A stretch of 64,000 bases of DNA from Leptolyngbya sp. SIOISBB (GTDB lineage: Bacteria; Cyanobacteriota; Cyanobacteriia; Phormidesmidales; Phormidesmidaceae), in NCBI GenBank assembly GCA_010671905.1, contig JAAHII010000001.1, forward strand, positions 4,650,001 to 4,714,000, read 5' to 3'. The translations under genes and the position numbers were made by a program. The number at the start of each line of letters is the position of its first letter. The first letter of the stretch is position 1. Under the pieces are notes generated by a model. It was given only the letters and a program-made list of their open reading frames with translations, searched no databases and was not told the DNA's origin. Below are positions 26,738 to 64,000 of this stretch, piece by piece.

Positions 26738-26739
26738 CT

Positions 26740-29153: not shown

Positions 29154-29156
29154 TGC

Positions 29157-45630: not shown

Positions 45631-46371
45631 CTAGGACAGAGACTGGCGAATGCGTTGCTTTAGTTCAGGGGGTACATGGTCAAGGCATTCCAGCAGCAGC
45701 CCCTTGAGCTGCCGGATGCGATCGCTGGCAGTTGGCTTGGGCACGACGGCGACAGGGGTTGGCTTGGGTGCTGTGTCGACTAGCTCTAATTCGGTTGGCA
45801 TGTACGGATAGCCGTGCTCCATGTCGGTTGCTAGATTGCCGTCCACCTGAGTAATTGTGATGACCTTTCCAGTATGCGGCGTGGCCTCGCCCACAACCCG
45901 ATATTGCCTGCCAGCGATAGGAGTGACGGGTTTGCGTTTGGGAGTGGGATCTACGATTTCCTTAGCCTGTCGGATTGATCCTGCCGTAGGCTTGCCGCCT
46001 GTGATTTGCTGGGCCGTATGAATGACCTCAACTCGCAAAGGTTCATCAACATCCTTGAGTTCAAGTAGCTGAGACGTTGGCTCTGGAGGTTGCTGCCCTG
46101 ACTGCAGCATCTGCAATTCTACTCGCCCCGCTTCAATACGTTGATAGATGGTGCGCTCCGCTCGCTTCCAGCGAAGGCGACAGTACGAATCGAAGCTTTC
46201 ATAAAGGGCATAGCCTTCGCTGTCAATCGCAAACCGCCAAAGCTGCTGGTCGAAAACTTCCAGCAATGCCTGCCGGATCTCCCTCTCGCCTTGCTCAATC
46301 AGGCTAAACCCTGACTGAATGGAGACTTCCAACTCTTTAAGGCGCTGATGCTGCGGTGTGAGTTCGCTCAT
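45631..46371 (-). CDS. Putative DNA-binding protein of plasmid/phage type
   Basis: 246 residues. The N-terminal part has the element LEVFDQQLWRFA...YESFDSYCRLRWKRAERTIYQRIEAGRV (abbreviated), a helical unit common in plasmid and phage proteins next to ParB-like or methyltransferase functions. The middle (RQYRVVGEATPHTGKVITI) may be a small beta domain; the end is Pro-rich then helical. Encoded between the sigma factor and small membrane proteins. Confidence 0.55.
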   Translation of the reverse strand: MSELTPQHQRLKELEVSIQSGFSLIEQGEREIRQALLEVFDQQLWRFAIDSEGYALYESFDSYCRLRWKRAERTIYQRIEAGRVELQMLQSGQQPPEPTSQLLELKDVDEPLRVEVIHTAQQITGGKPTAGSIRQAKEIVDPTPKRKPVTPIAGRQYRVVGEATPHTGKVITITQVDGNLATDMEHGYPYMPTELELVDTAPKPTPVAVVPKPTASDRIRQLKGLLLECLDHVPPELKQRIRQSLS

Positions 46372-46416
46372 GCTTGTGCCGATTTGTGTGACGATTTTGC
46401 GGAATTCCGCACAGAT

Positions 46417-47115
46417 TCAAGCCGACTGTTCCTTGATCCAATCCAAACCCTCCTCAATCAGGGAAGTGATAGTTTCTGGGGGGGCTCTGCGGCTAGCGGC
46501 CAAGTCGGCCACTGATACTCCATTCATCACGTGTGCCCGAATCAGCGAAACCTTCAGTTCTGGTAGTGCCCCTAACTGCTCAAGTAAAGACGGCCCTTCT
46601 GCTGGGCGATCGTCTTCAATGTCGAAATTCTCAAGAGCGTCGATTGACGCTGGCGCTGGCCGCTCGCGAGCCTCGCGAATGTAGGTCCATTCCTCTTTGG
46701 TGAAACCCAACCCGATCGCCACCTCCTCTAACGTCACCTCACGACCTTTGGCAATCAGCTTCTCCCATGTTCTAAGTACCCGTGGGTATTGCTCCGTCAC
46801 CGTGCGCTGAATCCTAAGCAGCCCCCACCCGTGATCACGAATGTAGTGGAGAATTTCACCCCGAATATAGGGCACAGCCAGACTACTGAAAGCATTTCCC
46901 TCGCTGGGCTTAAACTTGTCGATCGCTTTTAGCAGCCCAAACGCCCCGACCTGGCACAAGTCTTCAAAATTCTCAGAACACTGATGCGTCCACCGCCTCG
47001 CCTGTTGCTCTACCAAGCCCCAATTCGCGGCGGCAATTCTATCCCGAAGGCGACGGCTGGGGCGACGAATGTACGCGGCAAAAAGCGCTGCGTTGTCTGC
47101 GTGGGTAGGCGGCAT
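46417..47115 (-). CDS. Sigma-70 family RNA polymerase sigma factor
   Basis: 232 residues (a start 13 codons upstream is possible). Region 2 is clear: FEDLCQVGAFGLLKAIDKF, FSSLAVPYIRGEILHYIRD, matching group 3 cyanobacterial sigma factors of the SigF/SigB kind. Region 3 follows. Region 4 (VSLIRAHVMNGVSVADLAASRRAPPETIT) keeps the helix-turn-helix pattern but is divergent. First gene of the leftward operon, divergent from the recombinase. A role in redirecting host polymerase to element promoters is likely but untested. Confidence 0.85.
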   Translation of the reverse strand: MPPTHADNAALFAAYIRRPSRRLRDRIAAANWGLVEQQARRWTHQCSENFEDLCQVGAFGLLKAIDKFKPSEGNAFSSLAVPYIRGEILHYIRDHGWGLLRIQRTVTEQYPRVLRTWEKLIAKGREVTLEEVAIGLGFTKEEWTYIREARERPAPASIDALENFDIEDDRPAEGPSLLEQLGALPELKVSLIRAHVMNGVSVADLAASRRAPPETITSLIEEGLDWIKEQSA

Positions 47116-47207
47116 AGTTTTGGTGTAATTGCCAACGTGAGATGCCGTGAACAAGAATGTAGACGCCTTGATTCAATTGTACTGATTTCTCAAGGAATTA
47201 TCCTTTC

Positions 47208-48080
47208 ATGGATAGTTCTGTTGTGCACACTCAGGTATCGCCTTTAACTGGGCTGCCGCAGGCCAGTAGTGATGATCACCTGGTCGAGATGTGGCTGAGC
47301 AAATCTGAGTCGGACTGCACTCGCAAGGTCTACAGTCGGGTGATTAAGCGGTTCCGGCTGTGGTTAGGCACTAAGCGACTGCAGCAAGTTACAGCGCTCG
47401 ATCTGCTGGCCTATCAGGAGACTTTTAAGTCCACATGGGCAGATGCCACTTGCAATCAGCACAAGGCCGCTATCAAAAGCCTATGGACCTATGGGTGTGA
47501 ACTGCAGTATTTTTCGTTCAATATCCCCCACGCCTGCTACAAGCTGCGAAAACCCCGTCCCGTCACCGCTGAACGCATCCTGACTGAAGAGCAAATGCAG
47601 AGTGCCATTGATGCGGAGCCCAACCCGAAGGCAAAACTTTTCTTGAGGTTCCTTTATTCGACAGCGTTACGGGTATCAGAGGCGCTCGCACTGCAATGGA
47701 AGGATTTCGTCATCCTGGGCGATCGCGTATTTGTCCAGGTTCACCACGGCAAAGGAGATAAATTCCGGGAAGTGGGCTGCTCGGCTTTGGTGTATATGGA
47801 CCTATGGGACACCAAGCCGGACAGCACCACGCCGGACGATAAGGTGTTCAAAATCGCCTATGTCACTGCATGGCGCTGGGTCAAGGCGTCTCTGAAGCGC
47901 ATTAACCGCCCAGAAGGCTCACCTCACTGGGCCAGGCACGCCCACGCGGTCGCCAGCCATCGGAATGGGGCTGACTGGCACTCAATATCACAGCAATTGG
48001 GCCACGCAAACGCCAGTTTCACAATGGATCGATACGGTCACTTCACTGGCGACCATTCGAGTGACTTTATCGAGTGCTAA
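47208..48080 (+). CDS. Tyrosine recombinase / integrase
   Basis: 290 residues. SAM-like N-terminal domain (about residues 20-110), then the catalytic set: Arg in YSTALRVSEALAL, Lys in HGKGDKFRE, H-x-x-R in PHWARHAHA, His in LGHANASF, Tyr in DRYGHF. All look intact. Xer-like length. It lies in the middle of the element and not at the comM junction. A compound inverted repeat follows it. Confidence 0.9.
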   Translation: MDSSVVHTQVSPLTGLPQASSDDHLVEMWLSKSESDCTRKVYSRVIKRFRLWLGTKRLQQVTALDLLAYQETFKSTWADATCNQHKAAIKSLWTYGCELQYFSFNIPHACYKLRKPRPVTAERILTEEQMQSAIDAEPNPKAKLFLRFLYSTALRVSEALALQWKDFVILGDRVFVQVHHGKGDKFREVGCSALVYMDLWDTKPDSTTPDDKVFKIAYVTAWRWVKASLKRINRPEGSPHWARHAHAVASHRNGADWHSISQQLGHANASFTMDRYGHFTGDHSSDFIEC

Positions 48081-48081
48081 C

Positions 48082-48131
48082 GGCTCGCGTGAGCCAGGGG
48101 GGATGAAAGAATAATTACCCTTTTCTTTCAT
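48082..48131 (+). terminator. Double hairpin behind the recombinase
   Basis: GGCTC/GAGCC (48082-48095) and ATGAAAGAA/TTCTTTCAT (48103-48131, 9 bp) in tandem; an outer GCTCGC/GCGAGC pair (48083-48088, 48135-48140) could enclose both. It may be a terminator or a recombinase binding site. Confidence 0.5.
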
Positions 48132-48213
48132 GAGGCGAGCACCCTGGACGTTTGCCCCTGAGCTATTACTGCATAAGGCTTTTGGCTCTTTAAGTGCGCT
48201 ACAGGCGATACCC

Positions 48214-48618
48214 TTAATACTCCACTTCGATCTTGAGTAACGCGGCCACAGCTATCTCGACCAGCTCCACTTGTGGCTTGCCAGTTCTGTTTGACTCAGC
48301 CTCTAACGCGTCAGCCAAGCTCTGTCGAATGCCAAACTTCTTCTGGACAAGCGGTTCACCATGCTCTTTGGCGCGGTTCGCTCGCTGATAACCATAGGCG
48401 ACAATCCTCCGGTGCTGCTTGACCTTGCAGATAAGGGGATTGCTCTCAAGGAAGTCCTTAGAGGTAATTTTGTTCGACTTGAAGAAGACTGCTTTGGGTA
48501 ACCGAATCGCTTCATAGCCGTCCCACAACTTAATCGACTCGTGGAGCTTGCGATCGCTTTCTGTGTTCAACTCGACAGATGGCGGAATGGTGAACTCTAT
48601 TGGGGGGCTGCTAGCCAT
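48214..48618 (-). CDS. Hypothetical protein, possible DNA-binding C-terminus
   Basis: 134 residues from ATG 48618; longer starts would run into the region upstream of the terminase genes. The C-terminal SLADALEAESNRTGKPQVELVEIAVAALL resembles a helix-helix unit of ribbon-helix-helix type but lacks a clear strand. Convergent with the recombinase and divergent from the terminase genes, so a regulator of the late operon is possible. Confidence 0.5.
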   Translation of the reverse strand: MASSPPIEFTIPPSVELNTESDRKLHESIKLWDGYEAIRLPKAVFFKSNKITSKDFLESNPLICKVKQHRRIVAYGYQRANRAKEHGEPLVQKKFGIRQSLADALEAESNRTGKPQVELVEIAVAALLKIEVEY

Positions 48619-48817
48619 CGCTATAAGGTACCTATTAGGGTGCGCGGTGATGGTTCCTGGTAGCAGTGTTCTATAGGTGTACGGAGCACAAACCCCGCCC
48701 ATCAGCCCGATCTCCCTTCCCTGTGGGAGGTGTAGTGCGTGTAGTGGTCCTTGCAATCCCTGCTGTACGGGAATCCTGGTGATAGACAGGGTGAATTTTC
48801 GACACCGTAATATTACG

Positions 48818-49327
48818 ATGACCAAGAAGCCTGATAAGCGACAGCAAGCCTATACGATGTGGGTCCAAGGCACCCCCATTACAAAAATTGCTGCCAGACT
48901 GAAGGTTCACAGGACCACCGTTCAGGTCTGGAAAAAAGCGAGTAAATGGGACGAACTCAAAGACTCAATCCCTGAGCCACCACAAGAACCCCGCCGCCCT
49001 AAGTTGTTGAGCTTCGAGGGTGGCAAGAGTTCACGAGATGATAACTCCCAGCCGATATTTGATGTAGGCGACTTAAGCACAATCGAAGGGCAAACGGCAT
49101 TGATTGACCGGCTTATCAGTTTCGCGATGGGTCAAGTGCAACGTCCAGAAGGACCGCAAACCTACGCCAGCAGCATGAACGCGGTGCCCAAGCTGTTGGC
49201 AGAACGACGGGCGATCGCGCCCCTCGATAGAACAGCGTTACTATTGCTCTTGATGGACAAGTATCGCGACCCAGCGGACTTGCTCGAAGACTTGAAGGCC
49301 CAAGGATGGGGGCGTAAAGCGTCGTGA
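48818..49327 (+). CDS. Terminase small subunit-like protein
   Basis: 169 residues. N-terminal helix-turn-helix (RQQAYTMWVQGTPITKIAARL, then VHRTTVQVWKKASKWDEL), typical of small terminase and phage DNA-recognition proteins. Immediately upstream of terminase large subunit genes. It overlaps the next gene by four bases. ATG 48818 gives the natural start; a longer upstream frame is not needed. Confidence 0.75.
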   Translation: MTKKPDKRQQAYTMWVQGTPITKIAARLKVHRTTVQVWKKASKWDELKDSIPEPPQEPRRPKLLSFEGGKSSRDDNSQPIFDVGDLSTIEGQTALIDRLISFAMGQVQRPEGPQTYASSMNAVPKLLAERRAIAPLDRTALLLLLMDKYRDPADLLEDLKAQGWGRKAS

Positions 49328-49536
49328 AAATAACTACCGTCAAACCCATCAATAAAGCGCAAACCACGGAAGAAAAGATCGCGGCAACCACAGCCAATTT
49401 AATCCGTGAGGCCCAGGTTAAACGAGAGCTGGAGGCTGTTGAGCGCTGGGAAGCAAAACTCGCAGAACGTAAGCGACAACTGCGGGCAGAGTTAGCCGAG
49501 ATGAACTACGAATCACTGCTTGGGGTGTTGTTCTGA
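49324..49536 (+). CDS. Small coiled-coil protein between terminase genes
   Basis: 70 residues, fully helical and charged (EAVERWEAKLAERKRQLRAEL). GTG start overlapping the small terminase stop; ends two bases before the likely GTG start of the large subunit. Possibly a terminase accessory. Confidence 0.55.
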   Translation: MKITTVKPINKAQTTEEKIAATTANLIREAQVKRELEAVERWEAKLAERKRQLRAELAEMNYESLLGVLF

Positions 49537-49537
49537 T

Positions 49538-52500
49538 GTGGGCAGAGCCGAGCGCCTGGATAAGTTCACAGCGCTGCTAGAGGCGGAGTTTCAGATCTCT
49601 GGCGATCTCCCTTTTGCCGAGTACCGCGATCGCCCCGTCGAATTCATTCAGAATGAGCTGGGCTACTCACTGACGGTAGAGCAGCGGCAAATCTGCGAAT
49701 CCTTGAGGGACGACCGAGAGACCAATGTGCAGGCGTCTCATGGGTGCGGGAAATGCTTGGCGAAGAATGATACAATTATACTATCAAGCGGAGTTGAGGC
49801 CCCTGCTCAAAGTCTTGTAGGGCAGTGGTTTGAGACTGTGACTCTGATTGACGGGATTGTGTCTCCGGTCAAAGCATTTGCAGATTGGAATATGAGAGAG
49901 CCTGTTTACGAGGTTGTGACCGAAACAGGGAAGCGGATTGTACGCAATGCGCAGCATCCCTTGTTTGTGGCGATCAAGTGGAGCCGTGACGGAGCTCACC
50001 CAATTGTAGACGTCAAGGAATGGCAGGGCGTTGCGAGGCTTCAGCAGTGGCTATCTTCGCCTCCTGAGTACAAACCGTCGAAATTCATGCCCGACGATTG
50101 GTGTGTTGAGACAGAACGCAAGCATGCTGTCCTTTGTGCGATGCCTATTGAGGTGCCTGTTTTTGGCGACGTCGCCATGCAAGAGCACGAAATTAAGCTG
50201 TTGGCTTATCTGATTGGTGATGGTGGTCTGTCTGGTGCAAGCCCGGTCTTCTCTCAGCAAGAGAACAAACAGCTTCAAGAGGTGAGAGAGGCAGCGGCAA
50301 AAATGGGCTGCATTTTGATTCAGAAAAACAGATATGACTATGTTATTGCCCGACCTAAGGGGGGATCGACATACGCATAGAGTGTCAAACCTTAATGGGC
50401 TAGGAGAGAATGGCGATTTCTCGTGTGAGTTGCATACGTCAACCCGAAAATTGAGGGGACGCTATGGAATTAAAGAATGTGCTTTTTACGATCGCCTCAA
50501 GGTTTTATGGCTTGAGCCAGTTAAATTTTATGGCCGCTCTTACCTGAGCGCTTGCCAGATAAGGCTTTTAGATTTCTTTGATAGTTGTCTTGAAGAAACA
50601 AAGTCCTTGGGTAATGGGGCTGAGGCAACTGGCAGCTACTCAATGGCGATTGATTTGATGGTTGAAAGGGGCGTAGATATGTGCCCTTGCCCTCCTAATG
50701 AGCAGTATTTACAGAAACAAAAGGATGCGGCCATTAGTCGCTCTAAGGCCGATCAAGGCGTTTGCGAAGGGGTAAGGCGCAACGGAGTTAAAGCTAACCC
50801 TGTAACCGAATTGATGAGATGTCACGGGTTAATGGGTAAAACATCAGAGGATAAGCTCATCCCCGACTGCATCTTTGAGCTTCCCAAAAGCCAGCTAGCA
50901 TTGTTTCTGAGTCGATTATTTGCGACAGATGGATGGGCTAGCGTCGGGAATTCAAGTCGCGCTTCCGTCGAAATTGGATTTTGTAGCGCTTCAAGATTGC
51001 TTGTCGAACAGATACAGCGCCTTCTGTTGAGGTTTGGTATTAACGGTTCAGTCAGTCGAAAAAACAAGGTCAATGCTTGGGTGTACTCAATTCGCGTAAG
51101 TTCTATGATCCTCAAGTTTGCTGAGGAGATTGGTATTTACGGAAAAGAAGAGGCTCTACAAAAAGTTGTCAAGGTCGCTGAGCAACGAGCGACGTCAAAG
51201 CAGGTTCCAAAGTGGAGAACTAAGGATGCACCTGAAGGCACGGCGTGGGAAAAGGTTGTATCTGTCCGTCGCCTTGAGGATGAAGACGATACCGTTGCTA
51301 TTGAGGTCCCCGGACACAATACCTTTCTGACGTCTTTCTATGAGCACAACACCTTCCTTGCCGCCTGCCTGGTGCTGTGGTGGGTCTTAGCCGTGGGCGG
51401 ACTGGCGATCACGACTGCCCCAACCAAGCGCCAAGTTATTGAGCTGCTGTGGGGAGAAATCCGTCGCACCCACAAACGCCTCGACCTACCTGGCGAACTC
51501 ATCCAAACTAAGCTCACGCTAACTGAGGAAGCCCGCGCATTTGGTTTCACTGCGTCAGATACCAACAGCAACGCTTTTCAGGGTGTTCACCATCCGCGAT
51601 TGCTGGTGATTGAGGACGAGGCGTGCGGCATTTCCCAAGATATTGACGAGGGGGCGAGTAGTTGTGCGACGGGGGCGCAGAACCGCTTTTTGCGGATTGG
51701 CAACCCCATTGAGCCAGGGGGAGCCTTCGAGAAAGCCTGCAAGCAGAAACACATCCGCATACCGGTGTGGAATCACCCCAACGTGGCATGGGCCTATGAA
51801 CAGGAGCCCGATGGAGAACACCGCCTAAAGCCAGCCGTACGACCTCAGATCATTGGCGAGGACGGCGAAGTGTTGCCTCCCGACCAATGGCCCGATAGTT
51901 GCCCCCGCGACGCGATTCCCGGAGCTGTATCGATCACCTGGATTGAGGAGGCCCGCGCTAAATATGGCGAAGGCTCAGCCTACTGGCAGTCGCGAGTCTG
52001 TGGCCTATTCCCTGAAGACAGCACACAGTCAATCGTCCCTCGCACTTGGTTTATGGCTGCCCGTGCCCGCTACGATGCCGATCCGGAGCATTGGCAAAAA
52101 CAGTCAATCGCTCACTCGTTCCGCTTGGGCCTTGACGTGGGCGATGGAGCTGATTCCCATGCACTCAGTCGCTGGCAAGGCCCGCTGCTGTGGAGTGCTC
52201 GCAGCATTCCAACCAAAGGCGATCAGGAAGATGTGACCCGCGCGGCTGGATTGGCGATCGCGGTGCTAAAAGACATCAAGACTCGGAGCGTAGCCGCTCA
52301 GCTAAATAGACTGAATCCTGACAAACCACATCAGGGGAGCGTGACTGTAGACCGGGGCGGCGTGGGTGCCGGCGCTCATGCTCTGCTCAAAGAACAGGGT
52401 TACCCATCTACGGGTGTTCATTGGGGAGAGGCGGCACGGGATTCAGCGCAGTTCCTCAATGCCAAGGCCGAGGATTACTGGGCCTTGAGAGAAGCCTGTC

Positions 52501-52736
52501 GCAAAAATGAAATAGCGATCGCCCCCCTTGGGCAGTACGAAGATGAGCTGATGGAAGACCTTGCGGGTACCTACTGGGAGATGACCAGCGTCGGCAAAAT
52601 CAAGATTGAGGACAAGGCTAAGACCCGTAAGCGACTGAAGCGATCGCCTGACTTGGGCGATGCTGTGGCGCTGGGCTTCAGGCAGCCGAGGCTCAGAGAC
52701 GGCAGCTTCTCTCATACACCCATTAGCTATGCATAG
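49538..52736 (+). CDS. Terminase large subunit, interrupted by an intein and a one-base frame change
   Basis: TerL powers DNA packaging with an N-terminal ATPase and cuts DNA with a C-terminal RNase H-like nuclease. The N-extein (about 72 residues from GTG 49538) ends SHGCGK, the Walker A loop; the C-extein resumes TFLAACLVLWWVLA at 51351, so the intein splits GxGK-T. Walker B is LLVIEDEACG; the nuclease region includes LGLDVGDGADSHAL. The spliced protein would be about 533 residues. The upstream frame stops at 50378-50380 and the downstream frame is +1 relative to it, so splicing needs a frame fix or two polypeptides. Confidence 0.85.
49754..51350 (+). mobile_element. LAGLIDADG intein in the terminase Walker A loop, frame broken near 50359-50364
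   Basis: Starts with Cys (CLAKNDTII), block B is RNAQHPLFV, LAGLIDADG motif 1 is LLAYLIGDGGL and motif 2 FLSRLFATDGWAS (preceded by LIPDCIFELPKSQ), block F is GHNTFLTS and it ends EHN before Thr. All splicing and homing blocks are present in order. Its length is 1597 bases, 3n+1. The frame changes at a run of six G (50359-50364): with five G the two frames join. Between the motifs lies an unusually long segment (about 120 residues). Confidence 0.85.
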
Positions 52737-52744
52737 GAAATCTT

Positions 52745-54250
52745 ATGGCAGCGTTGTTCCTTGTTGCCGTGCAGAATCCCGCCGATCTCCCCAATTACGA
52801 GCACCCCACTCTCAAGAAGCTGACACCGGCTCTAAGGCTTTTGCTGGACTGCTACGAAGGGCTGTATGGCAAGAAGGATCAGTATCTACCTAAGGCACAG
52901 AAGGAACCTGATGAAGCCTATAAGAAGCGGGTAGAGCGAGCAGTTTTCAACAACAAGCTACGACCCATGATCGACAGTAACGGGGGGTTGCTAACAGCTT
53001 GGGATGCTAGTGGTTTGCCACCCACGCTGGAGGCTGCCAAGGAGAACGTTGATAACCAAGGGGCATCGTTCAAGAGCTTTGTGTACGCCGCTAATGTGGC
53101 GGGACTGCGTGACCATTGCTGCTATGTACTCACGATGATGGAGCCCAGCAGTGGAGATCGCACCCAGGCCGATGAGCAAGCATCACCTCGACGCCCGTAC
53201 TGGAAGATTATCGATCGCCGCAACATTCTGAACTGGCGGGTTCGATATGAGGGCGGACGCCCCATCATTGAGCAAGTCACGATCCAGATGCTTGAAGCCG
53301 TCTCTGATGGTAAGTACGGCAGCAAGACAGAGCCGCGATACCACGTGCTCACTCGTGCTGAGGCGGGCGTCACCCACGCGGTCTATACCATCAACGAGAA
53401 GGGTGAGGTGATAGATGTTGGGACAACTCAAACCATCCCGATTCCTCGCATTCCCTTGGTGGCTTACCCCGACCCAGGCGATCCGTTTCCTGGTGCCATC
53501 CCCAGCTTTTATAAGGCGGCTACGCTCAACATCAAGCTATTCCGCGAGGAAGCCACTCTTGGCAATATCCAATACCGCGTAAATGCCCCAACCTTTTGGC
53601 GACGCTCGTCCCTTCCCATTGGCAAGGGTAAAGACGGGAAACCCCAGCGTCCCCCGTTCGTTGTGGGCGAAAGCTACGTGATTGAGTTGCTGGCGGCAGA
53701 TAACGTGAACGGGCCGGATGAAGTGGGGGTTTTGGAAATCGACGGGGCGGGCATTGAAGCGCTCATGAAGTCGGTCGAGGAAACCAAAAACGATATTGAA
53801 TCGGAGTCATTGAGCTTCTTGTCTGGCAGTGCTGTGATGCGAACTGCGACGGAAGCCTATTTGTCCGGGGCTCAAATGAGTGCGTCTCTTAACGGTAAAG
53901 CTCGCCAGATGTCCGCAGCTCTCAAGCGCATGGTTGAAGACTGGTGCATGTTCACAAAGGAAGATCCCAGCGCCTTTGATATCCAGATGGATCACAGCTT
54001 ACTTGAGCAGCCATTAGACGCTCAGGAGATGGTAGGGCTTCTCAAACTATGGAATGACGACGCGATCGACCACAGGACATTACTGGAACTGCTGAGGATG
54101 GGCCGACAGTTGCCGCCCAGTGCAGATATCGACGAAATCCTGGAGCGGGTGGAAGCACAGCGACAGCGGCAGACGGCAGCGCCCGCCGTGCCAAATGGGC
54201 TAACTAATCCATTGCAGGCTTTACAGGAAAACTTGCCTCGTAATTCATAG
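52745..54250 (+). CDS. Portal protein, DUF4055-like
   Basis: 501 residues, the dodecameric ring at the capsid vertex through which DNA is packaged. It carries the pattern KIIDRRNILNWRVRYEGG seen in DUF4055-type portal proteins, followed by helical and clip-like regions, and a Gln/Arg-rich C-terminus. It starts eight bases after the terminase stop, which supports the assignment. Confidence 0.8.
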   Translation: MAALFLVAVQNPADLPNYEHPTLKKLTPALRLLLDCYEGLYGKKDQYLPKAQKEPDEAYKKRVERAVFNNKLRPMIDSNGGLLTAWDASGLPPTLEAAKENVDNQGASFKSFVYAANVAGLRDHCCYVLTMMEPSSGDRTQADEQASPRRPYWKIIDRRNILNWRVRYEGGRPIIEQVTIQMLEAVSDGKYGSKTEPRYHVLTRAEAGVTHAVYTINEKGEVIDVGTTQTIPIPRIPLVAYPDPGDPFPGAIPSFYKAATLNIKLFREEATLGNIQYRVNAPTFWRRSSLPIGKGKDGKPQRPPFVVGESYVIELLAADNVNGPDEVGVLEIDGAGIEALMKSVEETKNDIESESLSFLSGSAVMRTATEAYLSGAQMSASLNGKARQMSAALKRMVEDWCMFTKEDPSAFDIQMDHSLLEQPLDAQEMVGLLKLWNDDAIDHRTLLELLRMGRQLPPSADIDEILERVEAQRQRQTAAPAVPNGLTNPLQALQENLPRNS

Positions 54251-54259
54251 GCGATCGCC

Positions 54260-54667
54260 ATGCCACTTGGAGCCGCAGACCTTACCAGAATCGTCAAATA
54301 TCGAGCGTTTCAGTTAGGCACTACGGCAGGCAACGCCTTGACCTATAACGAAATGGTGACGCTGATTAACCAGCAGATCAGCAATATCAACGATGTCGAT
54401 GCCGCGCAGGGAACAACGTTTGCGGCAGAAATTCAAGTTGATTTAGATAGGCTAGACACCCTGGACGCCGCTCGCAACACCACTGCCAGAGAGGGCAGTG
54501 GCTCTATTAAAGTGTTGGGTCGAAAGGACGGTATTGAATATTTCAAAGGGGGGCCGCAAGCTGGCTTCACCCAGGAAATGGAACTACTACGGCAGCGTGT
54601 AGCACGAGTGCTGAGCCAGAGCTACGAGGATGTGGACAGCGGCGTGAGTATGGCCTATCGAGGATAG
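54260..54667 (+). CDS. Small head-operon protein
   Basis: 135 residues, helical, with LTRIVKYRAFQLGTTAGNALTYNEMV at the start. Directly behind the portal gene (9 bases). No known family; a head-completion protein is possible. Confidence 0.5.
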   Translation: MPLGAADLTRIVKYRAFQLGTTAGNALTYNEMVTLINQQISNINDVDAAQGTTFAAEIQVDLDRLDTLDAARNTTAREGSGSIKVLGRKDGIEYFKGGPQAGFTQEMELLRQRVARVLSQSYEDVDSGVSMAYRG

Positions 54668-54685
54668 GAAGTCTCACCGCGTACC

Positions 54686-54713
54686 GGGCGCGATGCCCAC
54701 ACTAGCGCGATGC
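54686..54713 (+). repeat. Spacer repeat GGGCGCGATGCCC...AGCGCGATGC, copy 1
   Basis: A short hairpin GGGC-GCGAT-GCCC (54686-54698) and a second GCGCGATGC (54704-54713) directly before the scaffold gene. A near-identical unit stands before the capsid gene. Confidence 0.7.
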
Positions 54714-54714
54714 T

Positions 54715-55515
54715 ATGAAATTTCAGCTACAGCAAAAATCCTTCCAAGTTCCTAGCGCGATCGCTCGCCACCAGAAACAGTGGGGATTTTGGAATGAGAT
54801 TAACCACGTTGACCCAGAGCCGCCATCTGCACCACCCCCAGAACCCACACCGCCGAATCCATCTCCCACTGCACCCCTGCAGCAGCCGGGATTAGACGCA
54901 CTTAAAGCCGAACGAGAACAAGTAAAACAGCTACAGCAACAGCTCAAAGCTTTTGAAGGAATCGATCCAGCTAAATATGCTGAAGCTATGCAGATTGCTC
55001 AGCAGCAAACTGAATGGGCTCAACAAAAGTCTGAGCTAGAAACCCAATACAAAAATCAGTACGAGCCGCAGATTAAGCAGCGAGACACGGAAATCACCCA
55101 GCACAAATCAGCCCTGGCAAACTATTACGCTGATGTAGCAGCCGAGCAAGCGTTTCTTTCTGCTGATGGCATCGCTGGGGAATTCACCGCGATCTCTCCC
55201 GCTGTACAGCAACGGATGCAAGTCAGTACCGAAAAACTGGAGTTTGACGAGTCAGGGAGATTAAAGCCAGGCTCTGTAAGCATTCAAATCCTTGATGAAC
55301 TAGGCCAACCTATGTTTGTGGATGGCAAGCCAGCCACGATGACCGATCTCATTAAAGATCTCGCCAAAAAGAACACTTGGATCGCTCGCCACTTCAAGGG
55401 CAATAACACACCAGGCTTTCAACTTGGTGGCAAAAGCGACTTCTCCTCTACGAACCCCAGTCTGTCCGGCGTTTCGGCTTGGGATCGGGTGAACATGAGC
55501 CGCCAAGGCGGATAG
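54715..55515 (+). CDS. Scaffold protein-like
   Basis: 266 residues located just before the capsid gene. A Pro-rich stretch (residues 30-50), then a Gln/Glu/Lys-rich coiled coil (residues about 60-135), then a C-terminal domain (QILDELGQPMFVDG). Capsid scaffolds have this layout and position. Assignment is from composition and order. Confidence 0.65.
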   Translation: MKFQLQQKSFQVPSAIARHQKQWGFWNEINHVDPEPPSAPPPEPTPPNPSPTAPLQQPGLDALKAEREQVKQLQQQLKAFEGIDPAKYAEAMQIAQQQTEWAQQKSELETQYKNQYEPQIKQRDTEITQHKSALANYYADVAAEQAFLSADGIAGEFTAISPAVQQRMQVSTEKLEFDESGRLKPGSVSIQILDELGQPMFVDGKPATMTDLIKDLAKKNTWIARHFKGNNTPGFQLGGKSDFSSTNPSLSGVSAWDRVNMSRQGG

Positions 55516-55539
55516 GAACCCTCAGAACCGAATAGGCAG

Positions 55540-55570
55540 GGGCGCGATGCCCTTAGATTCAGCGCGATGC
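55540..55570 (+). repeat. Spacer repeat GGGCGCGATGCCC...AGCGCGATGC, copy 2
   Basis: Hairpin GGGC-GCGAT-GCCC (55540-55552) and AGCGCGATGC (55561-55570) upstream of the capsid gene. Preceded by the same GGATAGGAA context as copy 1, so the spacer has been duplicated or kept in two places. Confidence 0.7.
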
Positions 55571-55609
55571 GGATCGATGCCGAGTAAACCGTTTTAGGAG
55601 GTGCCTTAA

Positions 55610-56554
55610 ATGGCATTAACTCTAGTAGAAGCGGCCAAACTTGCCAAAGATCCGCTAAAAGAAGCGGTCATCAATGAGTTTGCTGCTGGCGACATCTTAG
55701 GCGCGATTCCCTTTGAAAATGAAGATGGGACCGGCGTCCACTACAACAAGGTAGACAAACTTCCTGGCATTGGCTTCCGTGGCCTAAACGAAGCGTTTAA
55801 CGAGTCCACTGGTGTTATCAACCCTGAATCTGAAGCATTCCGCATTTTTGGCGGTGATGTCGATGTAGACGGCGCACTGGTTGCCATGAAGGGTCAGCAG
55901 GTTCGCTCTCAGCACGAGCAATTAAAAGTTGAGGCCAGCCGGATCAACTGGGAATACCAATTTATCAAAGGCGACTCAGCAGACAGTAATGGCCGTGGCT
56001 TTGACGGTTTACAAAAGCGTGTCACGGGCCGACAACGGATCAGCAATGTGGATGCGGGTGGGGCGCTGTCCCTAGCCAAGCTGGACGAAGTATTGAGCCA
56101 GGTCAAGCGTAGCGGTGGCCGTACTGTCGCGATCATGAGCCGCAAGCTCCGAGACGTGCGACTAACAGCAGCTTCTCGGGCTACTGGTGTCGGCGGGTTC
56201 CTGACTTCTACCCAAGATGATTTTGGGCGCACAATCACCAGCTACAGCGGCATTCCGTTGCTAGTAGATGATTTGAGCAACCCAATCCTACCGTTCACTG
56301 AAACAAGCCCCGATGGTACGTCTAGCACCGAATGTACGTCCATCTATGTGGTCACCTTTGGTCCCATGATGTGTACTGGCATTCAGGGACGTAACAACAG
56401 CGGGGGCTATGGTATCGACGTGCGCGACCTTGGAGAAATCGACTCCAAAAATGTCTACCGTACTCGAATCGACTGGAATTGCTCGTTTGCTATCTACAAC
56501 GGCTATTCCGTGGCTCGCTTGTACGGGATTACCGATGCGCCTGTAGTGGCCTAG
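55610..56554 (+). CDS. Major capsid protein
   Basis: 314 residues. Order (terminase, portal, scaffold, this) and the strong GGAGGT ribosome site fit a highly expressed HK97-fold capsid protein. Residues about 70-115 (EAFRIFGGDVDVDGALV) and the later NNSGGYGIDVRDLGEIDSK are typical structural blocks. No protease domain is fused. Confidence 0.8.
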   Translation: MALTLVEAAKLAKDPLKEAVINEFAAGDILGAIPFENEDGTGVHYNKVDKLPGIGFRGLNEAFNESTGVINPESEAFRIFGGDVDVDGALVAMKGQQVRSQHEQLKVEASRINWEYQFIKGDSADSNGRGFDGLQKRVTGRQRISNVDAGGALSLAKLDEVLSQVKRSGGRTVAIMSRKLRDVRLTAASRATGVGGFLTSTQDDFGRTITSYSGIPLLVDDLSNPILPFTETSPDGTSSTECTSIYVVTFGPMMCTGIQGRNNSGGYGIDVRDLGEIDSKNVYRTRIDWNCSFAIYNGYSVARLYGITDAPVVA

Positions 56555-56613
56555 ACCAATGGGGCACCTAGCCCCAGCTCTCACTCTGGACATTTGATTT
56601 AGGAGATAGACCA

Positions 56614-57069
56614 ATGGCTGCTGTAAGCGCAGTAAACCCTAACCTAGCCTCCGCTGATGCGGAAACTCGTCGGGCGGACATGCTCGATACCTTGCTTCTC
56701 CTGCGAGATATCGCAGACGGGGCGGAAACTTCCGATGTTGCCGAAACCGCTGTAGCGCTCGAAGTTGAAAAGCTGTCTATGGCAGCAATCAAAATCGATG
56801 GCTCATGCGCTGGTACTGTAGACGGTTCCAATTTCTGGACACTTACAATCAATGTTGCTGACAACGTGGGGATGAGTGACCCGACCGCGATCCATACCCA
56901 GGTGTTACCGGCTAGCTTCGATTACTACGTCCCTATCGACGGCAAGCAGATCGAGGCCATCCGTACCGCTGGGCAAGATGAAAGCCTGTACATTCAGGCG
57001 TCAATCGCCGAAACAGGCACTACTGCTACATCTTGCACCTATGGCGCGTATGTGACTAGCCAATGCTAG
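56614..57069 (+). CDS. Virion-type protein behind the capsid gene
   Basis: 151 residues; helical start (ADAETRRADMLDTLLLLRDIADG), then a beta-rich half with several Thr and Cys. An AGGAGA site lies before ATG. The position fits a decoration or head-stabilising protein. No family recognised. Confidence 0.55.
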   Translation: MAAVSAVNPNLASADAETRRADMLDTLLLLRDIADGAETSDVAETAVALEVEKLSMAAIKIDGSCAGTVDGSNFWTLTINVADNVGMSDPTAIHTQVLPASFDYYVPIDGKQIEAIRTAGQDESLYIQASIAETGTTATSCTYGAYVTSQC

Positions 57070-57077
57070 ACCCGAAA

Positions 57078-57108
57078 AGTGCGATCTCCAACTTCTGGAG
57101 ATCGCACT
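57078..57108 (+). terminator. Strong hairpin after the capsid gene pair
   Basis: A perfect 13-bp stem (57078-57090 with 57096-57108) and 5-base loop, nine bases past a stop codon. It has no T-run, so partial termination or RNA stability is possible. Confidence 0.6.
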
Positions 57109-57166
57109 ACCTAACTCCTTTTGTATCAATGCTTTCCCGTTCGCCAACCTCGCAGCGGTCGCACCC

Positions 57167-57508
57167 ATGAAGATTTACCACCCCACCAAAGGCTCCCGTG
57201 AGATTCCCGCCATTGACTTCACCGACCTGTGGCGTAAACAGGGATGGCAAGCGGAACCGTTCTCAGGTGATCACACCGCCCCTGCAAACCCCGCCCCCAA
57301 ACTGCTAGAACCGCCCCCCACTGAGCCCGCACTACATGACCCCGTAGCCGTGCGTATAGCCGAGCTTGAGGCATTGGAGAAAGAGAAGGGTTGGGACGCT
57401 ATCAGAGACATTGCTGATAGCTTTGACCCACCAGTCCCCAAGGGTGACACGTGGGTCAAGACAATTCCCGCGATCGTTGCTCGTGAACAGGCAGACGGCA
57501 AGCTATAG
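57167..57508 (+). CDS. Head-operon protein
   Basis: 113 residues: a short N-terminal beta part, a Pro-rich linker and a helical C-terminal half (VAIRIAELEALEKEKGWDAIR-like). Such two-part small proteins often link capsid and connector, but there is no direct evidence here. Confidence 0.5.
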   Translation: MKIYHPTKGSREIPAIDFTDLWRKQGWQAEPFSGDHTAPANPAPKLLEPPPTEPALHDPVAVRIAELEALEKEKGWDAIRDIADSFDPPVPKGDTWVKTIPAIVAREQADGKL

Positions 57509-57567
57509 CCTAGGTACACATGTACGAAAGATCGGGTGTATCATAGCGGAAACTTGGCGAGGGCGTG

Positions 57568-57681
57568 GTGACGGCTGCTGTTTTGAGTTTCGCTTCAGTG
57601 CTCGTGATCGTAGGTGCGGTAATCGCTTTGTTTACCGAGATGGGGCTGCGTGACGCACATACCAAGAGAATCCGTTCGTGA
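57568..57681 (+). CDS. Very small membrane peptide
   Basis: 37 residues: MTAAVLSFASVLVIVGAVIA is a membrane span, then a basic tail. GTG start (another GTG one codon earlier) with GAGG upstream. Unlikely to be chance because of its clean span; function unknown. Confidence 0.4.
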   Translation: MTAAVLSFASVLVIVGAVIALFTEMGLRDAHTKRIRS

Positions 57682-57757
57682 TTGCCTGCCTTGATATAGC
57701 TTTGCTCCCTCAACACACCAAAGGAACCCTTGACCCGTATGGTTCAGGGGTTTTTCT

Positions 57758-58687
57758 TTGGCCGACTATGCCCAAATCCTCGCTCTAGTTGAGCGCTACG
57801 ATCGCGCCATCGATGGCCTTGAGCAACAGGTCATCGACCGGGTGAACGCCGCCCTGGATGCCTCGTTTCGGGAGCTTGAGCAGGAGTTACGGCGTACTTA
57901 TCCCCAGCTGCAGGATGAAGGCGGTCTCTACAACTTCGTCCTCAAAACCGAGAAATTCAACCAACTGAAGGGGCTGCTTGACGAAATTCTGCCCCCAAGG
58001 TGGCAAGCCGACATTGAGGCGCTGTACACCGAAGCGTTTCAGCTCGCCTCTGATACGGGTATTGACCTAGCTGGCAACCTGGTCGAACAAATCGACCCGG
58101 CCTATCCACTAGACCCATTCAGCGGCATTCCCGTCGAAGCGATCGCGGCGCAGGCACGGGACGGGGTGAAGCGACTCTATCGCTATAACGACACGTTTGC
58201 TCAACGGGCCAGCGCGATCGTGGAGCTGGGACTCGCCCAAGGTCACGGTACCGCGAAGGTTGCCGCAGAGCTGGGGCGAGAGCTGGGGCTAGCGAAATCC
58301 AAGGCTGAGACCATTGCCCGCACTGAAATCATCTCCGTATTCAGCGATTCAGCAGACGCCCGTTATCTCGCGGCTGATATCGGCTTTTTCCAATGGCTTG
58401 TAAATCCGAGTGAAGGAACCTGCATCCTCTGTTACGCCAGGAATGGCAGGGTTTACAAGGTTGGGGCTGTACGAATCCCCGCGCACCCTCGCGGACGGTG
58501 TTTTAAACTCCCTTGGCGACGGGAGTGGCAACAGAAGGGGCTCACAGATGACAAGTGGCTTCGAGAGTATCGACAGCGCGGGCTTGAAGAACTAAAAACC
58601 GAGGGATTTAAGCCGGATTACGGGCCTACTTATTGGGAAAAGAAAGCAGGCATGGACAAAGCGCCAGAGGTCATATGGTCACCATGA
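57758..58687 (+). CDS. SPP1 gp7 / Mu F-like head morphogenesis protein
   Basis: 309 residues from a TTG start. The C-terminal domain has TCILCYARNGRVYK (Cys-x-x-Cys) and PAHPRGRCF, the minor capsid motif CxxC...HPxCRC in degenerate form (Arg-Gly replaces the middle Cys pattern). The N-terminal part is helical. These proteins act early in head assembly or DNA ejection. Confidence 0.75.
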   Translation: MADYAQILALVERYDRAIDGLEQQVIDRVNAALDASFRELEQELRRTYPQLQDEGGLYNFVLKTEKFNQLKGLLDEILPPRWQADIEALYTEAFQLASDTGIDLAGNLVEQIDPAYPLDPFSGIPVEAIAAQARDGVKRLYRYNDTFAQRASAIVELGLAQGHGTAKVAAELGRELGLAKSKAETIARTEIISVFSDSADARYLAADIGFFQWLVNPSEGTCILCYARNGRVYKVGAVRIPAHPRGRCFKLPWRREWQQKGLTDDKWLREYRQRGLEELKTEGFKPDYGPTYWEKKAGMDKAPEVIWSP

Positions 58688-58782
58688 TCGACTTGACCAA
58701 TCACACCTGGGACATTTCAAAACTAAATTCGCATCAGATAGATCTATTCCAATCCGAGCTAGTATTCTTCATCAAAGTTTAA
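58684..58782 (+). CDS. Small frame carrying the first copy of the cassette repeat
   Basis: 32 residues beginning MIDLTNHTWDISKLNSHQI. ATGA overlap with the gp7-like stop suggests translation, and the repeat starting at 58708 encodes WDISKLN here. It may be the cut end of a longer gene. Confidence 0.35.
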   Translation: MIDLTNHTWDISKLNSHQIDLFQSELVFFIKV

Positions 58783-59473
58783 TGATCATGCCGTTGATTT
58801 TGAATTGCGCATTCATAGTAAATATATAAATATAGGCTTCAGTAAGCGGGCAACTTATTAATCAGCACTTAAAGCTTAAATTATTTGATTAAAGTCATGA
58901 GAAAAAACAAATTACTTCTTGCATTCTCTATCGCACTCATAGGTATTGGCAGCATTCATGCAAGCGTCCAAGGGAAGGAAAATCCTGCAGAAAATCTTCA
59001 GAACAAAAATGCAGCAGCAATTTTCTGGCGAATTTTTGTACCTGCTGTGATAACTGGGGCGGGCGACGAAACAGGAAGAATTATTATTGATAGAATTTTA
59101 GGGCCAGGAGTTGAAAGCACCTCAGATCCCATCACCTGTGTAGTTGAGGATCCGACAGGTACACCGCTAAACGTCCGATCTACGCCTAACGGACCGGAGA
59201 TTGTAGGCACTCTAGAAAATGGAAGTCAGGTAATTCCCTACGACATCGCCATTGATGAGAATGAAAGACATTTTCTTTTGATAGGAAATAAATCTGACAG
59301 ATGGGGGTGGGTCTTTGGCCCATATATGTCTTGTTTCAAGGGCTGAAAACGCTTTCTTATACGATTTTAGTTTTGAAATGTCACATATCCAAAGTTCAGA
59401 AATTTCGGGTAGCTTTCTAGCGGCTTCCAAGGCAGGCGAATTTCTCGCAGAATCTATGTGGGACATTTCAAAA
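58708..59473. mobile_element. Cassette bounded by repeats TGGGACATTTCAAAA
   Basis: The 15-mer occurs directly at 58708-58722 and 59459-59473; an inverted copy of GACATTTCAAAACTAAA (17 bases shared with 58711-58727) is at 59364-59382. The enclosed DNA is AT-richer than its surroundings and holds one exported protein gene. It looks like an inserted moron. Confidence 0.6.
58885..59346 (+). CDS. Exported SH3-like protein in the cassette
   Basis: 153 residues. Signal peptide (MRKNKLLLAFSIALIGIGSIHA), a linker, then an SH3b-type domain (NVRSTPNGPEIVGTLENGSQV, WGWVFGPYMSC). SH3b domains bind cell-wall or other ligands. Base composition is AT-rich compared with neighbours, so it was likely acquired separately. 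The ATG at 58897 was preferred by signal start; 58885 adds four residues. Confidence 0.6.
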   Translation: MIKVMRKNKLLLAFSIALIGIGSIHASVQGKENPAENLQNKNAAAIFWRIFVPAVITGAGDETGRIIIDRILGPGVESTSDPITCVVEDPTGTPLNVRSTPNGPEIVGTLENGSQVIPYDIAIDENERHFLLIGNKSDRWGWVFGPYMSCFKG

Positions 59474-59909
59474 GCAAATTGATATCACACCACCCACCGA
59501 GCGCAAACGTGGGACTTATGCAAGTGCGTCCATCGCCTGCACCTATGGCATGGTGACTGGCTGAGGGGTCGTTTTGAGATTTGGCAGCGTCAGCAGGGTG
59601 GTTATATGGCGATCGCCAAAGCAGTCAGCAAGGCGTTATGATACGCACGTACTTTATCGGAGCCTTGTGAAGCCGATAAAGGGGCTAAATAACCCTGCCC
59701 CTTGTTTTGGCGATGTCATGGCGAGGGGTTTTAGTTTGACTGGTGGGCAAATCAAGGCCAAGGACGATCACCTTGAGGACCAATAGGTTTTGCGGTTTCA
59801 AATCGCAAAACTCCAAACCCTTGCTCCATCTGGGTTTAGTTGTCTAGAGTGACCAAAGCTAAATCCCTTCGGCTAGATTGGGGCTGTCGATACTTGTTGA
59901 GGGTTGGTG
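59347..59909. other. Non-coding stretch with hairpins
   Basis: About 560 bases. Contains the right repeats of the cassette, a hairpin AAGGGGC / GCCCCTT near 59676-59702, and GTTTTGCG / CGCAAAAC at 59787-59811. Only weak frames (59574-59786 +) are present; I do not support a gene here. Confidence 0.45.
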
Positions 59910-60206
59910 ATGGCACAGCTACAGAGCAATGGTACGTATCGCTTTGAATACACAGAACTGGCAAAAGCTCAAAGAGACTCCAGGGTTGGGGGAGACATGA
60001 ACAGGACTACTGTTTTTGGTGGGCCAGCGCCATCCTATGAAGCGACAGTGACGGAAGTCGCGGACGGAATATTCGTTGACGAGCAGGGACGGAAATACTG
60101 TGAGTTCAAAACCAGCGCCATGCCAGACTTTTTTGCTTACGTCGTTGTAGACGCTAATGGAGTAGTTCTTCAAATCGCCAAAGCAATGCTCAAAGACGCT
60201 CAATAA
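59910..60206 (+). CDS. Hypothetical protein
   Basis: 98 residues, beta-rich with a small helical end. GAGGG six bases before ATG 59910. No recognised family. It stands alone between non-coding stretches of the late region. Confidence 0.5.
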   Translation: MAQLQSNGTYRFEYTELAKAQRDSRVGGDMNRTTVFGGPAPSYEATVTEVADGIFVDEQGRKYCEFKTSAMPDFFAYVVVDANGVVLQIAKAMLKDAQ

Positions 60207-60318
60207 CTCCCTCATATTCGAGTGAGTAAAAATTGGTACGCCGTGAAACATTTACAGAGTAAGGCTTGCAGTCACTCTTAACCAATTTTGGTACGGCGTC
60301 AAGTATATAAATGCCAAT

Positions 60319-60344
60319 CTAAAAGCCGGAATTCCGGCTTTTAG
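60319..60344. repeat. Perfect 26-bp palindrome
   Basis: A fully self-complementary 26-mer centred on GGAATTCC with 11-bp arms. It lies in a 260-base gap that also has TGGTACGCCGT and TGGTACGGCGT (near copies). Might be a terminator or protein site. Confidence 0.75.
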
Positions 60345-60465
60345 AAAGTCCTCGGAAGCCTAGCTAGGCCCTTGGGCGCGGCTTGCCACTGATGCAAAAC
60401 ACAGCTCTATAACACAGCTCTATTTTATCCGGGCATCCTCCCAGCGACACATGAGGAGGGCTCCC

Positions 60466-60789
60466 ATGCTCAAAAACCCTACGATTTTGCTCGAACTGTA
60501 CGGATTAATTCAGTTCTACAACCAGCAGTTAGAGGCGGCTAAGGCCATCCAATCAGACGGCGGCGCCAAGGTCACGGCGAACGAAATGCTCGGTATCGCT
60601 TTGGCGGTATTTGTGCCGGCGCTGGAAAAGTTTCTATTGCCCACCATCCCCCGTGACACCATTCAAGCCATTGCGGCAGCGCTGGAAGTTGCAGGCGATC
60701 GCCTTGAGGATATCCGCGAGCAGGCCGCTGGCATTCTGAACAAAGCGGAGTCGGTCGGCGAGTCTGTGCTTCAGGTTTTGGAAGAGTAA
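60466..60789 (+). CDS. Hypothetical helical protein
   Basis: 107 residues from ATG 60466 (AGGAGGG five bases upstream). Amphipathic helices, with one hydrophobic stretch (EMLGIALAVFVPALEKFLL). Not a clear holin. Function unknown. Confidence 0.5.
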   Translation: MLKNPTILLELYGLIQFYNQQLEAAKAIQSDGGAKVTANEMLGIALAVFVPALEKFLLPTIPRDTIQAIAAALEVAGDRLEDIREQAAGILNKAESVGESVLQVLEE

Positions 60790-61500
60790 GTTGTGGTATA
60801 AATGATCTAGAGGCTTCCGGGGATTGGGCTAGACCGGAATAATGAGGGATACCAAAGCTCCGTGAGACAGGACAAAACAATTAACGTAGCTCCCCAACTC
60901 CCGCTGCTGAGACTAATGGCAGCAACTCAGCTTTTAGAGGTGAAGCGCTTCCGTCTCTCATCACCATTCCCTAAAGGGAAATTCAGGAGGTACAAGATAA
61001 TATCTGTTCCTTTCTGACATCTGCTACAGGATGAACCTGTAGTCCGAATCCATCGGGCCATGGACGTTACCGAGCAAACGATAAGAGGCCACAATATAGT
61101 TAACCTGGCCTCTGCTCATTATTGTTAGCCGCGCAGTAGTGCTAGGAGTTGCGCCCTGGTAATCCCCATGGCTTCGGCTGTTGGGATTCGTTTTATCCAC
61201 CCCTTGCTTGAGACAGCCGTGAGACACGGGAAATCAGGCGAGGGGTTTTTGATTGGCTGCGCCGCAGGCAACTACTCCATTAGAGTTGAAGCACTTAAAC
61301 CCTTGCATGGTAAACATTTCAGGGATTGCGGCCGCTTTTTGGGTGGACTACGTGAAATAGAGGGTTAGCGGCAACTGGCACACACCTTTTTCGGAAGCGG
61401 AAAGTCCAGGTTTAGGCCGACGATTCTACTCAACTGGCACACAGGTATAAACACTCATGTCTCATCAGTCTCATGGCGAGCAAGTCCATTTGACATTGTG
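60790..61500. other. Long non-coding stretch with several hairpins
   Basis: About 710 bases. Hairpins at 61025-61043 (CTACAGG/CCTGTAG) and 61084-61113 (AGAGGCCA/TGGCCTCT). Repeats of CAACTGGCACAC near 61373 and 61431. The first part is described separately as a possible TnpB guide-RNA end. No credible gene. Confidence 0.5.
60845..61010 (+). ncRNA. Possible IS605/TnpB right-end omega RNA remnant
   Basis: The order of blocks (GCTGCTGAG...CAGCAACTCAGC hairpin, AGAGGTGAAGCG, then CCATTCCC-TAAAGGGAA-type hairpin and TTCAGGAGG) resembles the 3' non-coding end of cyanobacterial IS605 TnpB genes. No TnpB is present. This rests on resemblance only. Confidence 0.3.
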
Positions 61501-62867: not shown

Positions 62868-62920
62868 GGCAATCGCTCAAAACTGCCGGGAATGTTCCCG
62901 ACGTGGCTTAAACGGGCGCT

Positions 62921-63846: not shown

Positions 63847-64000
63847 TGCCAACGATTCCGTTTTGGCTACGCTGGGCCACGTCTGGGTGGCAGTCAATCA
63901 AGATGCAAGTTGATGCCAAGGCTGAGGCGATGGGCCTTGAGACCTACTCTGAAGCGCCTGACCTGTATCGGTTTCACGGGTGGGGATTGGTGGGCATTAA
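63846..64000 (+). CDS. Partial gene at the window edge
   Basis: 51 codons from ATG 63846 to the edge without a stop, beginning MPTIPFWLRWATSGWQS. Overlaps the preceding stop by one base, so it is the next gene of the head-tail operon. Function unknown. Confidence 0.6.
   Translation, partial: MPTIPFWLRWATSGWQSIKMQVDAKAEAMGLETYSEAPDLYRFHGWGLVGI

What the first reader, a model, noticed from the sequence alone, without database searches (positions are those of the whole stretch)
49538..52736. Terminase large subunit gene holding an intein whose frame is broken at a G6 run
The intein sits exactly between GK and T of the Walker A loop, and all splicing and LAGLIDADG blocks can be read. Yet N-part and C-part are in different frames and the intein is 3n+1 bases long. 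Removing one G from 50359-50364 joins them. If the break is real, the packaging motor can be made only by slippage at G6, by a split-intein mechanism (two polypeptides with trans-splicing, each keeping one LAGLIDADG motif), or not at all. Natural split inteins with divided homing nucleases are known; a split at this point in TerL would be notable.
Basis: partly seen in the sequence, partly recalled or inferred. Interest (0 to 1): 0.85.

Follow-up and report, generated by a model that had tools for sequence, protein, structure and literature searches.

The report
Prophage packaging gene with misread intein
A virus DNA-packaging gene lying in a cyanobacterial chromosome carries a self-splicing, DNA-cutting insert (an intein); the one-base break in its reading frame is most likely a sequencing error, while an unusual extra DNA-binding-like domain inside the insert is real and modestly interesting.

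Summary
In detail: a prophage TerL gene (49538-52736) carries a LAGLIDADG intein (49754-51350, 1597 nt = 3n+1) between GK and T of Walker A, and its halves lie in different frames that meet at G6 (50359-50364). The proposed split intein or slippage is not supported.

(1) An intact relative, L208, has the same TerL intein in one 1058-aa ORF. It matches the window to 50353 in one frame and from 50415 in the other; the only run longer than three bases between is the G6.
(2) The assembly shows such faults elsewhere: 9 frameshifted coding places among 181 compared ORFs (8 net +1) against 1 of 164 in the reverse control, and an extra G in one of its two 23S copies (31 of 32 places found have four G).
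(3) The second half has no good start site; none of 18 viral intein loci is split here.

So the break is most likely one extra base in the assembly; a recent inactivating mutation is the main rival. DnaB inteins of cyanobacteria carry a different HTH in the same loop.

The parts
49538..49753 (+). TerL N-extein, up to GK of Walker A (start GTG 49538)
   Evidence: aligns with L004, L005, L007 and L208
49754..50362 (+). intein N part: Cys1, NAQH (block B position), first LAGLIDADG motif LAYLIGDG at 50201-50224
   Evidence: block names recalled
50359..50364 (+). G6 run where the reading frame changes
   Evidence: only run longer than 3 bases in the 61-nt interval 50354-50414 left between the two L208 alignments
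50378..50380 (+). TAG that closes the N-part frame as assembled
50365..50795 (+). extra domain inside the endonuclease, between the two LAGLIDADG motifs; HTH-like part about 50415-50600
   Evidence: absent from L012, L013, L014; similar over its residues 31-95 to ~200-aa free-standing proteins (matches in 62 of 388 genomes at E <= 0.01, G000 itself counted; best other E 5.9e-7) and to L208
50796..51350 (+). second LAGLIDADG half (FLSRLFATDG 50904-50933) and intein C part ending ...FYEHN
   Evidence: LAGLIDADG_3 PF14528 E 2.1e-14
51351..52736 (+). TerL C-extein beginning with Thr, 461 codons plus stop
   Evidence: phrog_2 terminase large subunit E 1.3e-18; 74% and 77% identical to L004 and L005, residues 1-446 matched
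48677..49327 (+). small-terminase-like gene
   Evidence: Terminase_5 PF06056 E 3.1e-8
52745..54250 (+). portal-like gene (DUF4055); 'portal' is my reading from gene order
   Evidence: PF13264 E 1e-7
55610..56554 (+). major capsid protein gene
   Evidence: GP7 PF20911 E 8.1e-9

Best explanation
In the organism the TerL gene very probably reads in one frame: N-extein, a bifunctional LAGLIDADG intein with an extra HTH-like domain, C-extein. The precursor would splice itself to restore GK-T of the Walker A loop, and the endonuclease would cut intein-free terL alleles so that the element can copy itself into them. The frame break is one extra base in the assembled sequence at or near the G6 run. 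Shown here: the anatomy, the empty sites, the intact relative, and the assembly's surplus of extra-base frameshifts. Inferred: splicing, homing, and that the true run has one G fewer.
For: Intact relative L208 in one ORF; it matches the window at 47% identity after the break and 41% before it (exteins included), extra domain included; 61 nt (3n+1) lie between the two alignments, and their only run over 3 bases is G6. Both halves, the splice-site residues and the C-extein are otherwise intact. Assembly quality: 1.264 Mb of this genome against 1.4 Mb of a same-genus genome; 181 ORFs with a match of at least 45% identity (57,169 aa) gave 11 frameshift rows = 10 places, 9 of them coding, net +1 in 8 and +2 in 1; the reverse control gave 1 (net -1) in 164 ORFs, 53,773 aa (Fisher p 0.02). 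Broken genes include ketopantoate hydroxymethyltransferase and a HhH-GPD/NUDIX glycosylase. Nucleotide alignment places the extra base in a homopolymer in 4 of the 9. In 23S rRNA, 28 of 95 genomes searched had the motif, at 32 places; 31 read GGGG, and the one GGGGG is one of this genome's two copies. At 9 per 167 kb, a 3.2-kb gene has a 16% chance of at least one such error.
Against: No reads were seen, so the G count itself is untested, and the sequencing platform is unknown. For 5 of the 9 coding places the nucleotide alignment does not put the extra base in a run, and L082 is net +2. In the long-read study consulted, homopolymer errors were mainly deletions, not the extra bases seen here (PMC12007338, passages). 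The Rfam bacterial 23S consensus aligns without a gap to the five-G copy, so that rRNA argument rests on the comparison within cyanobacteria and between the two copies. Only one relative genome served as control. Prophages do decay, so a real mutation is possible.
Confidence: 0.85

Rival explanations
1. The extra base is real: a recent frameshift mutation has killed the intein, and with it TerL, in a decaying prophage.
For: Single event, everything else in the gene intact, as expected of a recent mutation. An intein blocked from splicing inside Walker A would leave TerL dead (inference).
Against: The same genome shows 10 such places in 1.264 Mb, including a biosynthetic gene and one rRNA copy, so a mutation is not needed. 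In the window only one other same-strand pair of ORFs (110 codons or more) overlaps at a base run, and it looks like an ordinary gene overlap.
Confidence: 0.11
2. Programmed or spontaneous +1 frameshifting, or transcript slippage, at G6 makes a little full-length precursor.
For: The C frame is +1 of the N frame; codon GGG followed by G allows a P-site Gly tRNA to re-pair at +1 (recalled mechanism).
Against: The intact relative L208 has no frame change there, nor have the other viral intein loci examined; the run is only six bases.
Confidence: 0.02
3. Split intein: two polypeptides, each with one LAGLIDADG motif, joined by trans-splicing.
For: The C frame has start codons near the break (ATG 50334, 50340; GTG 50382 just after the TAG, with AAGGGGGG upstream).
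Against: No Shine-Dalgarno pairing at 50334, 50340 or 50346 and a weak one (-3.6 kcal/mol, spacing 12) at 50382, against -6.0 for the TerL start itself; N-frame homology runs up to the break; none of 18 viral intein loci is split there.
Confidence: 0.02

Closest known systems
TerL1-a inteins of mycobacteriophages (PMC5050341, passages read)
   Same: Intein between the invariant Lys and the Thr of the TerL P-loop. Five TerL or terminase-like inteins at other sites (b, c, e, f, g) spliced in that study and two (b, c) cut DNA.
   Different: Different phage lineage; here an extra HTH-like domain inside the endonuclease. Site a was not among the five tested for splicing.
Cyanophage Mic1 TerL inteins (PMC7156551, passages read)
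   Same: Cyanophage TerL with inteins, one of them in the ATPase domain; the large one has a homing endonuclease domain.
   Different: Mic1 TerL has two inteins; an extra domain is not mentioned in the passages read.
Intein of L208 (IMGVR_UViG_3300013026_000023)
   Same: Same TerL site (GK|S there), same motifs, same extra domain including PVKFYGRSY.
   Different: One continuous ORF; 43% identical over the HTH-like domain, second endonuclease half and intein C part.
Accessory domains of intein endonucleases, e.g. TliVMA and PI-TkoII (PMC8966425, passages read)
   Same: HTH-type DNA-binding domain attached to an intein endonuclease; the authors hypothesise that such domains come from genes such as transcription factors.
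   Different: In the two VMA inteins described there the domain lies between the endonuclease and the C-terminal splicing part; here it lies between the two LAGLIDADG motifs.
Intein endonucleases of cyanobacterial genomes (L048, L052, L058, L065 and others; DnaB by my reading of the exteins of L048, L052, L058 and L071)
   Same: HTH in the same loop between the two LAGLIDADG motifs.
   Different: Cro/C1-type HTH there (one of four tested reaches Pfam's own cut-off); a different HTH-like family here.

Membership tests
Phage terminase large subunit | match to a TerL family; Walker A restored when the intein is left out | tested here: met
   phrog_2 E 1.3e-18 for the C-extein; GK...T flanks the intein and L004/L005 read GKT. 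No Pfam match for the C-extein or for L004 and L005
LAGLIDADG-bearing intein | Cys or Ser at position 1, His in block B, terminal His-Asn followed by Cys, Ser or Thr | tested here: met
   Cys 49754; NAQH; FYEHN|T; the Pfam Intein_splicing model itself is below its cut-off for both halves
LAGLIDADG-bearing intein | two LAGLIDADG motifs | tested here: met
   LAYLIGDG 50201-50224 and FLSRLFATDG 50904-50933; PF14528 E 2.1e-14
LAGLIDADG-bearing intein | in frame with both exteins | tested here: not met
   as assembled the intein is 3n+1; judged an assembly error
LAGLIDADG-bearing intein | self-splicing and homing activity | not testable with these tools
   needs expression and a cleavage assay
TerL P-loop (GK|T) intein site | insertion between Lys and Thr of Walker A, with intein-free alleles known | tested here: met
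   L004 and L005 read GKTF without an intein; L012, L013 and L215 (GK|T) and L208 (GK|S) carry inteins at the same site
natural split intein | two separately started polypeptides | tested here: not met
   no good start site for the second half; 18 viral loci are single ORFs
natural split intein | trans-splicing | not testable with these tools
   needs expression of both halves
HTH accessory domain | sequence or fold similarity to an HTH family | tested here: inconclusive
   similar to ~200-aa cyanobacterial proteins, but Pfam HTH models match only at E about 0.03-0.04 and one of 12 members each, none for the window's own segment; best PDB match E 0.14; structure models not confident there

The most novel reading that the evidence does not exclude
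The G6 is real and the prophage makes its packaging motor from two polypeptides, or by +1 slippage, with the intein endonuclease divided between its two LAGLIDADG motifs.
Probability: 0.04. Interest if true: 0.85.

Novelty: new variant of a known kind. Interest (0 to 1): 0.22.

Why it matters
It removes a striking but probably false claim, a packaging motor that can be made only by slippage or trans-splicing, and flags this genome as one whose frameshifts should not be read as biology without reads. What remains is a small, testable point: in a TerL intein and in DnaB inteins of cyanobacteria, different HTH-type domains sit in the same loop between the two LAGLIDADG motifs, and in TerL the domain resembles free-standing cyanobacterial proteins. 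That fits the published hypothesis (PMC8966425, passages) that intein endonucleases pick up DNA-binding domains from other genes.

Tried and rejected
Intron inside the intein (an insert of non-triplet length at the break): rejected. Rfam gave no intron family at E up to 10, the insert is open in the C frame, and L208 carries it as protein in one ORF. Insert as a repeated mobile element in the host: no second copy; the best other DNA match in the genome had E 0.28, and there was no other protein match at E up to 1. Insert in phage records: no match at E up to 1; in plasmid records 7 weak matches, all from cyanobacteria, best E 2e-4. Structure of the insert: two AlphaFold jobs gave no confident fold there (mean pLDDT 58.2 and 49.5). 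Intein N part in viral contigs with one sequence: no relative; with an alignment, 4 loci, two of them contigs already held. A profile search of 386 genomes with the HTH-plus-endonuclease alignment found the whole arrangement only in the window's own genome; the other 29 genomes with a match cover the endonuclease part alone. The same alignment in viral contigs found it only in L208's contig. DNA nearly identical to 46000-64000 in phage records: none.

Counts and dropped rows: of 11 rows I merged two that hit the same place in L206 and set aside one over 23S rRNA, leaving 9 coding places. L206 rests on 46-59% identity. Three of 62 G/C runs of six in the compared coding DNA lie at frameshift places, but for L082 the nucleotide alignment does not put the extra base in its G6. 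An earlier run on less sequence gave 6 rows in 128 ORFs against 1 in 111. Of 29 genome loci L045-L073, my motif pattern found both LAGLIDADG motifs at a usable spacing in 16; the other 13 were not read further.

Papers: on HTH domains in intein endonucleases I searched; on TerL or split inteins. No passage I opened described an HTH between the LAGLIDADG motifs of a TerL intein; the library lacks most subscription journals. Only passages were read of any paper.

I also found that the long-read paper reports mainly deletions, and so lowered the artefact reading from 0.86 to 0.85 and raised the real-mutation rival from 0.10 to 0.11.

Full report
What is there. The window lies in a 7.87-Mb contig of a cyanobacterial genome (that it is a cyanobacterium I read from its photosystem genes and its relatives) and contains a prophage: integrase 47208-48080, a small-terminase-like gene, TerL, a DUF4055 portal-like gene and a major capsid gene. 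TerL runs from GTG 49538 to 52736; its C-extein matches the PHROG terminase large subunit family at E 1.3e-18 but no Pfam family. An intein occupies 49754-51350, from Cys1 to the final Asn, and is followed by Thr; intein-free relatives L004 and L005 show the empty site as HGCGKTF.

Between the two LAGLIDADG motifs the window has about 234 residues (arithmetic on the motif positions), against 96-101 in the viral inteins L012-L018. The excess begins at the break. It is open in the C frame and resembles, mainly over its residues 31-95, free-standing proteins of about 200 aa; 62 of 388 genomes of the class, this one counted, match at E <= 0.01, the best other at 5.9e-7. The resemblance to helix-turn-helix proteins is by pattern; Pfam support is weak, no solved structure matched below E 0.14 and two structure predictions were not confident there. 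In intein endonucleases of cyanobacterial genomes the same loop often holds some 75-85 further residues: 11 of the 16 in which my pattern found both motifs, out of 29 loci. Four of these tested match Pfam HTH families at best E values of 7e-6, 0.0067, 6.3e-8 and 0.00031, one of them above Pfam's cut-off.

An intact relative. L208, from a metagenomic viral contig, has TerL with an intein at the same site in one 1058-aa ORF, including the same extra domain with the shared stretch PVKFYGRSY. It aligns to the window in the N frame up to 50353 and in the C frame from 50415. The 61 nt between are 3n+1 and hold one run longer than three bases, the G6. The simplest reading is that the ancestral state is one frame and that the change is net one base near G6. 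A scan of viral contigs with the HTH-plus-endonuclease alignment found this arrangement only in that contig, and a search of 386 genomes only in the window's genome. None of 18 viral intein loci shows a frame break; L217 among them has no endonuclease, L015 is cut by its contig, and L015-L018 are one sequence type.

Is the break real? I compared 1.264 Mb of the window's genome with 1.4 Mb of a same-genus genome. Of 181 ORFs with a match of at least 45%, 11 rows showed a frame change: 10 places, 9 of them coding; 8 are net +1 and one net +2. The reverse comparison gave 1 of 164, net -1. Among the broken genes are ketopantoate hydroxymethyltransferase, an ABC transporter ATPase and a HhH-GPD/NUDIX glycosylase. 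Nucleotide alignment puts the extra base in a homopolymer for 4 of the 9 (L078, L086, L160 and the ketopantoate gene in L190); for the other 5 it is unclear or elsewhere. The 23S motif was found in 28 of 95 genomes, at 32 places; one of this genome's two copies has GGGGG, while its other copy and the 30 places in other genomes have GGGG. A difference between two rRNA copies at a base run is most simply an error, though the Rfam consensus, which is not cyanobacterial, is as long as the five-G copy. Long-read assemblies are known for homopolymer indels; the paper consulted found mainly deletions (PMC12007338, passages), whereas the surplus here is of extra bases. The platform used here is unknown to me.

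Mechanism. Most likely the gene is whole in the organism, the precursor splices, and the endonuclease spreads the element among terL alleles. In mycobacteriophages, TerL inteins at sites b, c, e, f and g spliced and those at b and c cut DNA; the Lys|Thr site is described there as TerL1-a (PMC5050341, passages). The HTH-like domain may add DNA contacts, as proposed for accessory domains in archaeal inteins (PMC8966425, passages). These steps are inference for the window's intein.

Verdict.

Noticed in passing
G000:C1:5267910-5267947 and C1:1796970-1797006 (L162 covers the first): The genome's two 23S rRNA copies differ by one G in a G run (five and four G); the 30 places found in other genomes have four.
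   Followed up: yes
L045-L073 (intein loci of cyanobacterial genomes): The loop between the LAGLIDADG motifs varies: of 16 loci measured, 11 have 175-184 residues between motifs (four tested carry an HTH), 3 have 85-107 and 2 have 125-130.
   Followed up: partly
window 46417-47154, strand -: A sigma-70 region 2 protein beside the integrase; relatives lie within a few kb of TerL in L004, L005 and L006 too, so it looks like part of the phage.
   Followed up: no
window 26132-32695, strand -: Long tail-like genes, including a 1015-aa protein, lie on the opposite strand about 15 kb upstream of the integrase; the prophage may extend there or be a second one ('tail-like' is my reading).
   Followed up: no
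L217 4800-6926: A viral TerL-like ORF with a P-loop intein that lacks the endonuclease altogether (GK|C...EHN|T).
   Followed up: no
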